Positions 33,415 through 43,268 of a DNA stretch of 64,000 nt are shown here, one piece after another (the first letter of the stretch is position 1; each line of letters begins with the position of its first letter). Where the stretch lies: positions 1 through 64,000 of the forward strand of contig MEPR01000052.1 in the NCBI GenBank assembly GCA_001769835.1, written 5' to 3'. The DNA is from Bdellovibrionales bacterium GWB1_55_8 (GTDB lineage: Bacteria > Bdellovibrionota > UBA1018). The notes beneath the pieces are model-generated. The model was given only the letters and a program-made list of their open reading frames with translations. It ran no database searches and had not been told where the DNA came from. Position numbers and translations under genes: made by a program.

Positions 33415-34884
33415 CTACCACAAAATAGAACCAATTGACTTTGTAGCCCAACCGAGTGCCTGCTCAGCGAAGATCCCCGTCAAAAGAAGTGGCATCATCA
33501 GGAACCCCAAAAATATTTTGGTTCGCAAAGGCGTCGCGATCGGCGGTCCTGACAGTTTCTTGAAATCTCCGATCAAGGCGAAGGCAAGGCGCGCCAAAGC
33601 AATCGCGGACAACGCAAACGCCAGGACCGCGACCGACACAAGTCCGATTCGTTGCTGCTGCAGCGCGGCGCCTATCAAAGCAAACTTGCCGATAAAGCCG
33701 GGCATCGGCGGGAAACCAATGAGGCTCACGAGAAACAGGATGAGACAAACGGACTGAAAAACCGTTCGGCCGAGCATTCCCCGCAGCTCCGTCAGCCTGT
33801 CTGAACGGACTTCGTTCACAAAATGAGAAATGACATAAAAAGCTCCCGCGATCGCGAAGAGCTGTACCAGAAGATTATAGAGGAGGGCGGAAACACCGAT
33901 CTCGTTCATGACGAGAAGACCCATGATCAAGAATCCGCTCTCCGCGACAACCAAATTCGCGACCATCTTCTTTGCCGCCGTCTGTCTTAGCGCCAGTAAA
34001 GACCCTGCGATCATCGTCACGCCCGAAGCCAGGGCAAGCACCCCCTGCCAGGGAACACCTCCCAATACCTGCCACTCTCCCGACTGAAGAGCCGGCTGCG
34101 CGAAGAGGACCAGTAAAAATCGGATGGCCAGGGCAAAGCCGGCGGCGCGAACGCCAATGGCGAGAAAAGCAGTAGCGGGAGTCGGCGCGCCAGAAAAGAC
34201 GTCCGATGCCCAAAGATGCATTGGAAACAATGTCATTTGGAATGCGAGAGCAAGGAAGAGCAGCAGAAAAATGACAAGCGCGGCAGTCGCGGCAAGAGGA
34301 GTCGAAACAAGTGTTCGATGGATTTCGTGGATGTTCAGGAGCTGCGTCGAGGCGAAGAGCATCGCCATCCCGTAGGCCAACAACGCTCCCGCGACAGCGC
34401 CCACAATCAGAAACTTCAATGCCGCCTCGTTGGAACGCGGCGACCGCTTGGAATAGCCCGCAAGGAAGTATCCAACCAGATTAATGAACTGAAGGGCCAA
34501 AAATGCGAGGAGAAGGTTTGCGGCCGAGGCGGCGATGCACATACCCAAGCTTCCGGCAGTGATCAGAGCTATGTATTCGGGGCGTCGGCTCGGAGCAATC
34601 TCGCGGCTATGCAACGACATGACGACCGCGATCATCGCCAGCGCAATGAAGAAGAGACGAAAAAAAAGCGAAAGGCCGTCCACGACCAGGGTTCCGCTGA
34701 AAACCCGCTCGGCTCCGTACTGATAGGCCAGAAGCGCCTGCAAAAACGCGCTACCCAGGCCGAGCAGCGCGGTAACCGAAATCAGTCGAAGCCGTTCACC
34801 GTGATAAGTGACTTCACCGAGGATGACGAAGGCAAGCGTCAAGGCCAGAAGAATCTCAGGAAGTATCAGGATCAGTTCTCTCAC
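33415..34884 (-). CDS. Divergent NuoN paralogue lacking proton-path residues
   Basis: 489 residues with the full multi-helix NuoN layout and recognisable markers (RSNEAALKFLIVG, SGAPTPATAF). Against the neighbouring NuoN, the membrane Glu of IALELMSL is Gln132 (LALQFINL), the Lys of LFKVAAVPFH is Gln216 (LAFQMTLFPMH) and the Lys of GLKAA is Arg246 (GVRAA). The charged proton path is therefore gone while the fold is kept. It lies 10 bp after the NuoM paralogue. Probable non-pumping structural subunit of the second complex. Confidence 0.88.
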   Translation of the reverse strand: MRELILILPEILLALTLAFVILGEVTYHGERLRLISVTALLGLGSAFLQALLAYQYGAERVFSGTLVVDGLSLFFRLFFIALAMIAVVMSLHSREIAPSRRPEYIALITAGSLGMCIAASAANLLLAFLALQFINLVGYFLAGYSKRSPRSNEAALKFLIVGAVAGALLAYGMAMLFASTQLLNIHEIHRTLVSTPLAATAALVIFLLLFLALAFQMTLFPMHLWASDVFSGAPTPATAFLAIGVRAAGFALAIRFLLVLFAQPALQSGEWQVLGGVPWQGVLALASGVTMIAGSLLALRQTAAKKMVANLVVAESGFLIMGLLVMNEIGVSALLYNLLVQLFAIAGAFYVISHFVNEVRSDRLTELRGMLGRTVFQSVCLILFLVSLIGFPPMPGFIGKFALIGAALQQQRIGLVSVAVLAFALSAIALARLAFALIGDFKKLSGPPIATPLRTKIFLGFLMMPLLLTGIFAEQALGWATKSIGSILW

Positions 34885-34894
34885 CTGATTCGCC

Positions 34895-36400
34895 TCATTT
34901 CATTGCTGAAAGGAGCGTCAGAACCGTGGGCCTGACAAGCTCCAGAAGTGGTTTCGGATACATCCCGCAGAGCACAATTCCGGCGACCAGAGGAAAAAGA
35001 TAGGCCCGCTCCCGAAGCGAGAGGTCAGTGAAAGACCCTGCGCCGTTCTGTTTCCCTAAAAAGAGAAGCCGGTACATGATGAATAGATAATAGGTGGCAA
35101 GGAGCAGTGCCGCGAGCGCGACCAAAACAGCCGCGGGGTGGGCGGGGTAGCTGCCGATGACAATCAAGGCGTGACCGATGAAACCGCCAAAGCCCGGAAG
35201 AGCCAGAAGGGAGGCGACAAAAATTCCCGCCACAAGTGCGATCATCGGCCCCCTCAAGGCAAGACCACCACCTCCTGATTCAAGAAACCTTGAATGCCCC
35301 AGGCGCTCGCTCATCAATCCGGCGAAAAGGCCGAACCCGGCCAGGCCGAGGCCAAGTGCCAGGTTCTGATAAACAGCGCCGACCACGCCTGCGGAATCCA
35401 GCGACCCAACGCCGATGAGAACCAGGCCGGCCTGGCCCATGCACAGGTAGGCACCCAGCATTCTCAGGTCACCCTGCGCGGCCGCTGAAATACCACCAAT
35501 CAACAGATTGAGCGCGCCGATCGCGACGATTCCGGAAGCGGCTGCGAGCAACGTATCCGGGAAAAGCGTGTACGAGAGCCTCATGAAAATATAAATCGCG
35601 ACCGGAATAGTGACGGCAGAAAGCGCCACAAAGACCGAGGCCGGCGCTTCACGCGCCGCATGAGTAAACCAGGCGTGTGCAGGCCAAACGGCCGCACGAA
35701 GCGCCAGTCCCGCTCCGGCAAGCCCGAAAGCGAGCCCGGAAATGGGGACATCACTCCCGAAAACTGAAATGAATTTGCCGTTGAGCGCTGTTCCGGCAAG
35801 GTCCCGGATGGAGAAACTGTGCGGCTCCACAGAGTAATAAACGAGTATCAGTGAAACGAAAAGCAGCGCGTTCCCGAAGGCGGCGGTAGTGATGGTACGA
35901 AACGCGGCGCTCTCCCTTTCCTCGCCGCCCCATATACCGATCAGGAAATAGAACGGGAGAGAACTGAGTGCCCAGAAGAAAAACAGAAGGAATAGATCCT
36001 GAGCGCAGACGGCTCCGGCAAAAGAGGTCTGCAGCAACAGAAAAAGAGAGAACATTCCTTTTGCCCCGATAGCACGATTCCACTCCGAGGCGATCAGTAC
36101 CGGAAAAACAATTGAAACAAGAAGGACCAGAAGGACATTCAGCCCGTCGAGCCCCATTTCGTAAGTAATCGCATAAGACCCAATCCACGTGAACCGCTCG
36201 GCCGCCTGCAGTTCCGCCGTCTCCGATGCCATCGAGAGAACCAGCACCAGACCGCAGAAGCTCGAAGCGATACTGGCTGAAATAGCGAGCCAGCGTGAAA
36301 CCCGGTCTTTTCCTTCACCGGGGAAGGACGGCAGAAATGCCTGGGCGATCGCGCCGAGCAAAGGCAATAGGACCATCAGTGAAATAAGATGATTGTTCAC
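34895..36400 (-). CDS. Divergent NuoM paralogue lacking proton-path residues
   Basis: 501 residues, many membrane helices. FFWALSSLPFYFLIGIWGG aligns with FWEAMLIPMYFLIGIWGG of NuoM1, so the essential Glu is Ala144. GLALRAAVWPAHAW aligns with SIKVPLFPLHTW, so the Lys is Arg235. The second Lys (ILLKMGG in NuoM1) falls at the uncharged SAVTIPVA near 265. The frame is intact and overlaps the NuoL paralogue by 4 nt. Family membership is clear; pumping function is unlikely. Confidence 0.87.
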   Translation of the reverse strand: MNNHLISLMVLLPLLGAIAQAFLPSFPGEGKDRVSRWLAISASIASSFCGLVLVLSMASETAELQAAERFTWIGSYAITYEMGLDGLNVLLVLLVSIVFPVLIASEWNRAIGAKGMFSLFLLLQTSFAGAVCAQDLFLLFFFWALSSLPFYFLIGIWGGEERESAAFRTITTAAFGNALLFVSLILVYYSVEPHSFSIRDLAGTALNGKFISVFGSDVPISGLAFGLAGAGLALRAAVWPAHAWFTHAAREAPASVFVALSAVTIPVAIYIFMRLSYTLFPDTLLAAASGIVAIGALNLLIGGISAAAQGDLRMLGAYLCMGQAGLVLIGVGSLDSAGVVGAVYQNLALGLGLAGFGLFAGLMSERLGHSRFLESGGGGLALRGPMIALVAGIFVASLLALPGFGGFIGHALIVIGSYPAHPAAVLVALAALLLATYYLFIMYRLLFLGKQNGAGSFTDLSLRERAYLFPLVAGIVLCGMYPKPLLELVRPTVLTLLSAMK

Positions 36401-42377: not shown

Positions 42378-42816
42378 GAATCTTATCCTGCAAGGCTAAA
42401 AAACCATTCATGATCGCTTCCGGTCTCGGCGGACACCCCGGAACATATACATCCACCGGAAGCACCTGGTTCAAACCAGGCACGACGGAGTAACTCACCT
42501 CTGGGCCGAATGCGCCACCCGAGTTCGCACAAGCGCCTATGGACATCACATGTTTCGGCGCGAGCATGGAATCATAAAGTTGCTTCAGGTAAGGCGCTGC
42601 CTTCCGCGAAATCGGACCACTCACTATGAGCAGGTCCGATTGTTTCGGATCCGCCTGAAGGGCGCACCCATAACGTTCGAGATCATAACGGCACCCGATC
42701 GTGTTCAAAAGCTCATCCGCGCAGCATCCCGAGTTCACGGAAAGAAACCATAACGATTGGGACCGTGCCCAATTCAACACCCGGCCGACGGTGGAAAGAT
42801 AGAGCCCCCCGGTCAT
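42346..42816 (-). CDS. NuoB-like subunit of the second complex with intact N2 ligands
   Basis: 156 residues. All four cluster N2 cysteines are kept: Cys31-Cys32 (GCCADELL), Cys96 (GACANSGGA) and Cys128 (PGCPPRPE). The fold is standard (VDVYVPGCPP ends as in NuoB1). Retention of the terminal cluster, with loss of quinone ligands in its partner NuoD-like protein, suggests a changed electron acceptor or a structural cluster. It overlaps NuoA and NuoC paralogues. Confidence 0.92.
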   Translation of the reverse strand: MTGGLYLSTVGRVLNWARSQSLWFLSVNSGCCADELLNTIGCRYDLERYGCALQADPKQSDLLIVSGPISRKAAPYLKQLYDSMLAPKHVMSIGACANSGGAFGPEVSYSVVPGLNQVLPVDVYVPGCPPRPEAIMNGFLALQDKIRGNKRALRQD

Positions 42817-43268
42817 TTGGAATCCTCCAACGTCTCCGCCTCGGGCTCGACCCGCAGAGAGCGCGCTTCACGTTCAAGGTCCTGTTGATAGGTTCGAAGC
42901 CAGCTCAAGTCACCCTTTCTTGCGGCATAAAGAAGGCCTAGTGCCGCGAGCCCGGAAATCACCAAAACCGAAATAAAGCCTCCTGCGAACCCGCCGCGAT
43001 CCGCATCGGCCAGAGTGCCCACACAAGGGATCAGGGCCAGCGCGAGCGCTATCAGGGTCAGTGAGGCGTTTGCCGCAAGAAAGAACCTGGCATTCACTTT
43101 CTTGTTCACGAAACCATCATCTGTGCGCGGACTGGATTCGGATTCCGAAGCCAAAACGCCGGATCTTTGCTTGAAAAAAGCGGATCCGATCCAAAGCGCG
43201 CAAGGAATGGCGAGCGCCAGGAACGCCGACAAAAACACCACGTAATAAACGTCCCAGCCGCTGGGCAT
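42813..43268 (-). CDS. Divergent NuoA paralogue
   Basis: 151 residues, three membrane helices plus a charged C-terminal extension of about 35 residues not seen in NuoA1. RFFLAANASLTLIALALALIP aligns with RFYLVAILFLLFDVEAIFF but the acidic pair is Ile73 and Leu75. The PYECG loop is absent; a Ser/Glu-rich loop (about 40-52) stands there. It is the first gene of the 25-gene leftward array, with a good ribosome site (AGGGAG) 4-5 nt before the ATG. Divergent from mfd with 114 bp between starts. Confidence 0.82.
   Translation of the reverse strand: MPSGWDVYYVVFLSAFLALAIPCALWIGSAFFKQRSGVLASESESSPRTDDGFVNKKVNARFFLAANASLTLIALALALIPCVGTLADADRGGFAGGFISVLVISGLAALGLLYAARKGDLSWLRTYQQDLEREARSLRVEPEAETLEDSK

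What the first reader, a model, noticed from the sequence alone, without database searches (positions are those of the whole stretch)
33415..43268. A full second complex I (11 genes) whose membrane arm has lost its proton-carrying residues
Seen: nuoA,B,C,D,H,I,J,K,L,M,N paralogues in one array, all frames open, most joined by 4-nt overlaps, directly before the canonical 13-gene set. By eye alignment to that set, the key charged residues are gone from A (Asp/Glu to Ile73/Leu75), H (Glu chain), K (Glu to Gln31 and Gln68), L (Glu lost, Lys to Gln232), M (Glu to Ala144, Lys to Arg235) and N (Glu to Gln132, Lys to Gln216 and Arg246). Known: these residues are required for pumping in characterised complex I. 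Inference: neofunctionalised, non-pumping complex I-like assembly, not decay, because loss is coordinated and frames are intact.
Basis: partly seen in the sequence, partly recalled or inferred. Interest (0 to 1): 0.95.

Follow-up and report, generated by a model that had tools for sequence, protein, structure and literature searches.

The report
Complex I without pump or quinone
Next to its ordinary complex I, this bacterium carries a second, eleven-gene complex I-like set that has lost its quinone-binding residues and most proton-carrying residues but kept every cysteine that holds its iron-sulphur clusters, so it likely moves electrons for some other, still unknown purpose.

Summary
Eleven open genes (nuoA B C D H-N, minus strand, 43268-33415) lie 32 nt before a canonical 13-gene nuo operon, and most key membrane charges are gone.

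Three further findings change the picture. (1) The quinone site is lost too: NuoD H224, Y273 and D325 (E. coli numbering) are kept in 0 of 27 family sequences. (2) The cluster ligands are intact: eight NuoI cysteines in 32 of 32, four NuoB cysteines in 26-27 of 27. (3) The set is not a copy of its neighbour; NuoD groups with EFG-less 11-gene complexes.

Across one order of Bdellovibrionota the set sits directly before canonical nuo (33 of 33 relative loci that show both) and runs from partial loss (family f2) through full loss (f1) to shrunken proteins (f5) that still keep all twelve cysteines. dN/dS is 0-0.10 in the closest usable pair: a conserved machine, not decay.

Best reading: a membrane-anchored iron-sulphur relay that neither pumps nor reduces quinone, made together with canonical complex I. 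Donor, acceptor and contact with complex I are inferred or unknown. Nine paper searches listed no report of it.

The parts
42813..43268 (-). nuoA2 (151 aa); D79/E81 replaced by I73/L75
   Evidence: no NCBIfam hit
42346..42816 (-). nuoB2 (156 aa); four N2-cluster cysteines kept, R87 to Gln
   Evidence: NCBIfam NuoB subfamily above cut-off
41886..42377 (-). nuoC2 (163 aa)
   Evidence: NuoC family, below curated cut-off
40730..41902 (-). nuoD2 (390 aa); quinone ligands H224, Y273 and D325 lost (P, T, A in the window)
39666..40733 (-). nuoH2 (355 aa); E157, E216, E218, E228, E241 lost; K274 kept
   Evidence: AlphaFold2 model and Foldseek
39133..39684 (-). nuoI2 (183 aa; start probably at 39669); eight cysteines of two 4Fe-4S clusters kept; family-typical YPDPxSS and FGRG motifs
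38615..39184 (-). nuoJ2 (189 aa as called; start probably at 39136); Y59 to Ser
38328..38618 (-). nuoK2 (96 aa); E36 and E72 to Gln; new R78
36397..38331 (-). nuoL2 (644 aa); E144, K229, K342, K399/D400 lost; NuoL fold predicted
   Evidence: no NCBIfam hit
34895..36400 (-). nuoM2 (501 aa); E144 to Ala, K234 to Arg, K265 to Pro, E407 to His
   Evidence: NCBIfam NDH_I_M above cut-off
33415..34884 (-). nuoN2 (489 aa); E133 and K217 to Gln, K247 to Arg; E104, K158, K395 kept
   Evidence: Pfam PF00361
33383..33414 (-). 32-nt gap between nuoN2 stop and canonical nuoA start; no terminator-like site listed inside it
20027..33382 (-). canonical 13-gene nuo operon (A B CD E F G H I J K L M N) directly downstream; its A, H, K, L, M and N keep the pump residues tabulated
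43269..43343 (.). 75-nt divergent intergenic region between nuoA2 and mfd (transcription-repair coupling factor, + strand); probable start of the 24-gene run (inference)

Best explanation
The eleven genes encode a second complex I-like set that keeps all twelve iron-sulphur cysteines of NuoB and NuoI but has lost its quinone ligands and most of its proton-carrying residues, so it likely works as a membrane-anchored electron relay that neither reduces quinone nor pumps protons. Shown by sequence: gene set, residue losses, kept cysteines, family-wide conservation, and position directly upstream of canonical nuo. Inferred: the proteins assemble into an L-shaped complex; a small redox protein docks on NuoI2, whose YPDPxSS, W109 and FGRG features are near-invariant in f1 and f5; electrons run N6a, N6b, N2; they leave N2 to a non-quinone acceptor or partner, because the exchanged NuoD residues (Pro and Thr here, Pro and Pro in most relatives) would close the quinone site. 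Also inferred: it is made in step with canonical complex I from one transcript and lies against it, its long membrane arm (retained, though shrunken, in family f5) serving as a contact surface rather than a pump. The donor, the acceptor and the contact have not been observed.
For: Counts are family sequences, window included. Cysteines: NuoI 8 of 8 in 32 of 32; NuoB positions in 26, 27, 27, 27 of 27; all twelve also in the five f5 sets read. Quinone ligands: H224 0 of 27 (Pro 24), Y273 0 of 27 (Pro 24), D325 0 of 27, against 65, 63 and 62 of 65 references. Pump: NuoL E144 0/35, K342 0/35, K229 one charged of 35; NuoM E144 0/32, K265 0/32; NuoK E36 and E72 0/30; NuoA D79 and E81 0/25; NuoH E157 0/31. 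Purifying selection. Distribution: NuoI2 in 48 of 55 genomes of the order (own included) at 195 bits or more, then 145 and 123 bits (same class), then 115 and below. Position: in 33 of 33 relative loci with nuoN2 and sequence beyond it, canonical nuoA follows on the same strand; 30 of the 33 gaps are 117 nt or less. In f5 the membrane proteins shrink but B, D, I and their cysteines persist. Fold: NuoH2 and NuoL2 models match complex I NuoH and NuoL.
Against: No biochemistry; assembly is assumed. Cysteines may be kept for folding only. NuoN keeps E104, K158, K395, NuoM/NuoN carry Arg where Lys was, and new buried charges have appeared, so some charge path could remain. f2 sets keep NuoD Y273 in 3 of 3 and several NuoM/NuoH charges. 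A donor supplied through POR is not general: POR_N passes its cut-off in 11 of 40 genomes, own genome included. No acceptor gene was recognised next to the operon. NuoC2 was not detected in L029, L030, L033, f4 or f5. G024's NuoI2 has a stop before its last cluster Cys. Two f5 genomes (G035, G037) showed only canonical NuoI: loss or assembly gaps.
Confidence: 0.5

Rival explanations
1. A redox-inert structural twin: the assembly is a dead enzyme retained only as a scaffold or assembly partner of canonical complex I, its clusters being kept for protein folding.
For: Position directly upstream of canonical nuo in 33 of 33 relative loci; long membrane arm kept without pump residues; loss of quinone ligands removes the only known acceptor site.
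Against: The cluster ligands and NuoI2 motifs are almost invariant, also where the membrane subunits have shrunk; a pure scaffold need not keep three clusters.
Confidence: 0.2
2. It still moves an ion by a rebuilt path, using Arg at NuoM 234 and NuoN 247, the NuoN E104/K158/K395 set and the newly conserved charges in NuoJ, NuoK, NuoH, NuoM and NuoN, perhaps driven by another acceptor.
For: NuoN E104 30/30, K158 30/30, K395 Lys or Arg 28/30; NuoM Arg at 234 31/32; NuoK R78 30/30; NuoJ R/K40 31/34; Glu at former His sites of NuoM (14/32) and NuoN (13/30).
Against: NuoL has lost most of its conserved buried charges; NuoH E157 is gone in 31 of 31 and the NuoA and NuoK acids in all counted, breaking the link from the redox site; Arg rarely exchanges protons (general knowledge); the L and M ORFs are about 280-300 and 327-396 aa in four of five f5 loci.
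Confidence: 0.13
3. A redox sensor: N2 is reduced by the cellular pool and the shape change regulates canonical complex I or another partner.
For: Cluster ligands kept without a known acceptor; position directly before canonical complex I genes.
Against: No regulatory domain or partner gene was recognised beside the operon; the charges thought to carry shape change along the arm are mostly gone.
Confidence: 0.12
4. Ordinary decay: a dying or assembly-artefact copy of nuo.
For: Fast NuoL2 evolution (41-46% identity within genus g16; 63-95% within g33); NuoD in two ORFs in G028 (L031), a stop in NuoI of G024; shrinkage in f5.
Against: Eleven open frames here and in 17 of 34 relative loci (the others mostly cut by contig ends), low dN/dS, near-invariant cysteines, presence across the order.
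Confidence: 0.03

Closest known systems
[quoted passage not shown]
   Same: Same 11 subunits, no NADH module; NuoD2 groups with such sets from other phyla (96% SH-aLRT, quick tree)
   Different: That paper concludes that the 11-subunit enzyme mainly makes menaquinol and keeps the quinone-channel and pump features; here both are lost
Respiratory complex I (NDH-1), as encoded by the canonical operon downstream
   Same: Homologous subunits, predicted NuoH and NuoL folds, cysteines for three 4Fe-4S clusters of the Q-module kept
   Different: No NuoEFG in the set, no quinone ligands, most pump residues lost; 19-31% identity to the neighbour's membrane subunits
Membrane-bound sulphane-sulphur reductase (Mbs) and hydrogenase (Mbh) branch (recalled, not compared here)
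   Same: Precedent for a complex I relative that hands electrons from the last cluster to something other than quinone
   Different: Those keep ion-pumping modules (recalled); NuoD2 shows no NiFe-type CxxC pairs in its sequence
Tandem membrane-arm sets nuoAHJKLMN in other Bdellovibrionota families (L130, L132-L136)
   Same: A second membrane arm; in L132 and L134 it lies directly beside canonical nuo genes
   Different: They keep nearly all the pump residues tabulated and show no B, C, D or I in the stretches fetched

Membership tests
Respiratory complex I (NDH-1) | Homologous core subunits A-D and H-N | tested here: met
   NCBIfam/Pfam and alignments; A and L have no NCBIfam hit and rest on alignment, position and (L) model
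Respiratory complex I (NDH-1) | NADH module NuoE, F, G in the set | tested here: not met
   No E, F or G among the eleven genes; the canonical operon has them
Respiratory complex I (NDH-1) | Quinone ligands NuoD His and Tyr | tested here: not met
   H224 and Y273 kept in 0 of 27; 65 and 63 of 65 references
Respiratory complex I (NDH-1) | TM5 Glu and TM7 Lys of NuoL/M/N; NuoK Glu pair; NuoH Glu chain | tested here: not met
   NuoM retains Arg at the TM7 site, NuoN Arg at K247, and part of the NuoH chain is Asp
Respiratory complex I (NDH-1) | N2, N6a, N6b cluster ligands | tested here: met
[quoted passage not shown]
[quoted passage not shown]
   NuoD quick tree, 96% SH-aLRT, with a long-branch warning; in the careful tree L041 and then other EFG-less sets lie between it and the canonical ones, three EFG-less rows being unresolved
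[quoted passage not shown]
   Residues only; activity was not testable
Membrane-bound NiFe hydrogenase branch | NiFe-ligating CxxC pairs in the large subunit | tested here: not met
   No such pairs in NuoD2 (sequence)
Mbs-type sulphane-sulphur reductase | Sulphur reduction at the last cluster | not testable with these tools
   Needs biochemistry
Any working complex | Subunits assemble together | not testable with these tools
   Only single chains were modelled

The most novel reading that the evidence does not exclude
A whole respiratory complex I has been converted, throughout one order and probably one class of Bdellovibrionota, into a pump-less, quinone-blind twin that is co-made with and bound to the true complex I, acting as an electron tap or reservoir wired through its kept iron-sulphur chain: a new use of the largest respiratory enzyme.
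Probability: 0.3. Interest if true: 0.95.

Novelty: new variant of a known kind. Interest (0 to 1): 0.88.

Why it matters
How complex I couples its redox site to distant proton channels is still argued. Here nature has run the loss experiment on a full-size set: quinone ligands and most pump residues went while cluster ligands stayed, in a graded series of relatives (f2 partial, f1 full, f5 shrunken). That series shows which residues fall together and which are not lost, and offers a natural candidate for a non-pumping control of complex I. If the set binds canonical complex I it would also be a new kind of respiratory partner.

Tried and rejected
The NuoL2 profile search of proteins reached its candidate limit and gave 13 hits, of which two are clear relatives (one the window's own); NuoH2 worked better (412 hits, best 120 listed). 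'Absent in f2, f4, f5 and G023' was my first reading; two searches showed the set is there but too divergent for the NuoL2 search. A universal POR-linked ferredoxin donor was considered and not supported (11 of 40). Tandem duplication of the neighbouring operon was considered and is contradicted by the NuoD trees. dN/dS is saturated in most gene pairs; NuoI2 in L017/L142 (0.66) was dropped because the called ORF is over-long (447 aa), and canonical CD values that pair C with D were dropped. No terminator-like site was listed in the gap between the two sets, but the terminator scan is at chance level overall (22 found, 20.7 expected). In one search, L132 (a tandem set) was removed before counting gaps, and the -115 value (L137) comes from an over-long canonical nuoA call. 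Profile comparison for f5 found H, M and N (probability 98, 92, 95; M equally like NuoL) but not A, J, K or L, which rest on position only. Nine paper searches (listings seen) showed no report of such a set; most subscription papers and all bioRxiv preprints are outside that library.
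Full report
What is there. The window holds 24 co-directional minus-strand nuo genes in one run: eleven (A B C D H I J K L M N, 43268-33415), a 32-nt gap, then a canonical thirteen-gene set (33382-20027). All eleven frames are open. Divergently upstream is mfd; beyond it lie two SurA-like proteins, pdxA, uvrA and cytochrome bd. NCBIfam recognises B and M above cut-off and C, D, H, I, J and K below cut-off, and gives no hit for A or L; N hits Pfam PF00361.

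Residues. Counts below are family sequences, window included: NuoA D79 and E81 kept in 0 of 25; NuoK E36 in 0 of 30 (Gln 26) and E72 in 0 of 30 (Gln 22); NuoL E144 and K342 in 0 of 35, K229 to Gln in 22 of 35; NuoM E144 in 0 of 32, K234 to Arg in 31 of 32, K265 to Pro in 29 of 32; NuoN E133 and K217 in 0 of 30 each, K247 to Arg in 26 of 30; NuoH E157 in 0 of 31. Not lost: NuoN E104 and K158 (30 of 30 each), K395 (23 Lys, 5 Arg), NuoM D84 (32 of 32) and D135 (31 of 32), NuoH K274 (31 of 31). New conserved charges appear: NuoK R78 (30 of 30), NuoJ R/K40 (31 of 34), NuoH E296 (25 of 31), NuoN 377 Glu (29 of 30; Gln here), and Glu in about half at former His sites of NuoM and NuoN. NuoL R175 cannot be judged: alignments disagree by one column.

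The redox half. NuoD H224, Y273 and D325, which hold quinone in complex I (role recalled; Y273 was located by its recalled 49-residue spacing from H224), are kept in 0 of 27, with Pro at the first two in 24 of 27 each; 65 references keep them in 65, 63 and 62. In contrast all eight NuoI cysteines are present in 32 of 32 and the four NuoB cysteines in 26, 27, 27 and 27 of 27. Conserved ionisable or Cys columns are lost selectively from the membrane arm: 45 kept and 44 lost, against 67 kept and 9 lost in B, D and I (p = 1.6e-7). NuoI2 also carries family-typical positions (P56, S58, W109, S134, G156 and G158 in 34 of 34 each; f5 4-5 of 5; f2 differs at P56).

Distribution. The NuoL2 profile finds 40 of 368 phylum genomes at 1e-10: 34 in the same order (32 of 35 in family f1, plus f3 and f6) and six in f9, f22 and f23. 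Those six are a different thing, tandem membrane arms A H J K L M N that keep nearly all pump residues tabulated. The NuoI2 profile finds 48 of 55 genomes of the order at 195 bits or more, then two same-class genomes at 145 and 123 bits, then 115 and below. Of the seven misses, five show other genes of the set (G008 and G009; G022, G031 and G355); G035 and G037 showed only canonical NuoI. Both same-class genomes, G343 and G342, also carry a similar run just before canonical nuoA, with an extra large hydrophobic ORF between L and N.

A graded series. Family f2 sets are partly stripped: in G024 NuoM keeps K265, H322, H348 and E407, NuoN keeps E133 and NuoD keeps Y273, but NuoL, NuoK, NuoA and NuoD H224 are lost; G029 is stripped further. 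Family f1 is the most fully stripped at full length. In family f5 (five loci read) ten ORFs in the same order are mostly shrunken (A 74 aa in four loci, L about 280-300, M 327-396, N 454-477; G030 differs, with L 414 and N 389; start calls uncertain), C is missing, and B, D and I keep all twelve cysteines, with Pro at H224 in four of five and at Y273 in five of five. Profile comparison confirms H, M and N there; A, J, K and L rest on position. In the NuoD tree f2 sits between the remaining sequences and the f1/f4/f5 rows (100/100 and 100/99 splits), consistent with stepwise loss, though some branches are very long.

Origin. NuoD2 is one clade (100) that groups with EFG-less eleven-gene complexes of other phyla (96) and apart from the canonical NuoD of the same genomes (quick tree with a long-branch warning). 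In the careful tree L041 and then other EFG-less sets lie nearest to it. It is therefore a separate lineage, not a fresh duplication of its neighbour.

Selection. Closest usable pair (L137/L138, dS 0.09-0.37): dN/dS 0.026 D, 0.017 H, 0.102 I, 0.025 J, 0.000 K, 0.085 L, 0.041 M, 0.036 N; canonical A and B 0.017 and 0.000. L017 against L142/L141 (dS about 0.9-1.6): 0.10-0.26 for ten genes, canonical genes 0.018-0.069. Other pairs with measurable dS give 0.05-0.39. Constraint is looser than in the canonical set but well below 1.

Structure. The NuoH2 model (pLDDT 77.7) matches NuoH of complex I (TM 0.72-0.84 by query length in the 50 rows shown); its weakest loop, 223-238, covers the former Glu loop. 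The NuoL2 model (pLDDT 82.3) matches NuoL (TM 0.62-0.71, 12-16% identity); rmsd is about 17-20 A in most rows and 5-7 A in four, and its long C-terminal helices have lower confidence.

Who carries it. Where organisms are named, NuoH2 relatives come from Bdellovibrionota, Bdellovibrionales, Bdellovibrionia, Oligoflexia or Bdellovibrio. One (P0111, 63% identity) is from FG-1, placed in class UBA1018 by PMC13200544 (passages read; its main text has no 'nuo' and no 'NADH'). That f1 is the family of FG-1 is an inference from similarity.

How it most likely works. Electrons enter at NuoI2, pass N6a, N6b and N2, and cannot go to quinone; no usual proton path is left from NuoH into NuoL. Conserved adjacency (33 of 33 relative loci) and the lack of a listed terminator-like site in the gap suggest joint production with canonical complex I, and the retained long arm suggests contact with it. 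These steps are inferred. A POR-ferredoxin supply is not general (11 of 40, own genome included), so the donor is open; for eleven-subunit enzymes in general PMC11238625 also calls the donor an open question (passages read).

Verdict. Real, conserved, not found in the papers searched, and unusual. Function beyond 'quinone-blind, non-pumping relay' is not settled.

Noticed in passing
L134:6898-14431 (also L130, L132, L133, L135, L136): In families f9, f22 and f23 of the phylum a second membrane-arm set A H J K L M N, without B C D I in the stretch fetched, keeps nearly all pump residues; in L132 and L134 it lies directly beside canonical nuo genes. In L132 its NuoL is in two ORFs.
   Followed up: partly
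L171:5165-15035 and L172:169-8895: G024 and G355 carry an additional EFG-less complex (G355 cut by the contig end) that keeps its quinone ligands and nearly all pump residues (NuoM K234 is Ile), grouping with a Bacteroidota NuoD.
   Followed up: partly
L192:2511-13317 and L193:6226-16467: In two same-class genomes the second set has one extra large hydrophobic ORF between L and N, and several membrane subunits are barely recognisable by sequence.
   Followed up: partly
L176:7336-13885 (also L177-L179, L186): Family f5 sets are the smallest complex I-like arrays seen here: ten ORFs in about 6.5 kb with all twelve cluster cysteines.
   Followed up: yes
L187:6101-13605 and L188:177-3905: Further NuoB/D/L/M-like genes with weak scores to both sets in G024 and G031, possibly another complex I-superfamily enzyme.
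   Followed up: no
window 8769-10967 (+): 732-aa protein with six DUF4379 treble-clef zinc-finger stretches.
   Followed up: no
window 27499-28914 (-): Canonical NuoG is short (471 aa against 908 in E. coli); 466-486 aa in the relatives read in full.
   Followed up: no
window 42346-42816 (-): NuoB2 has extra cysteines after the N2 Cys pair (GCRYDLERYGC); the second recurs in most relatives aligned and in the five f5 sequences, near the former quinone cavity by recalled homology.
   Followed up: partly
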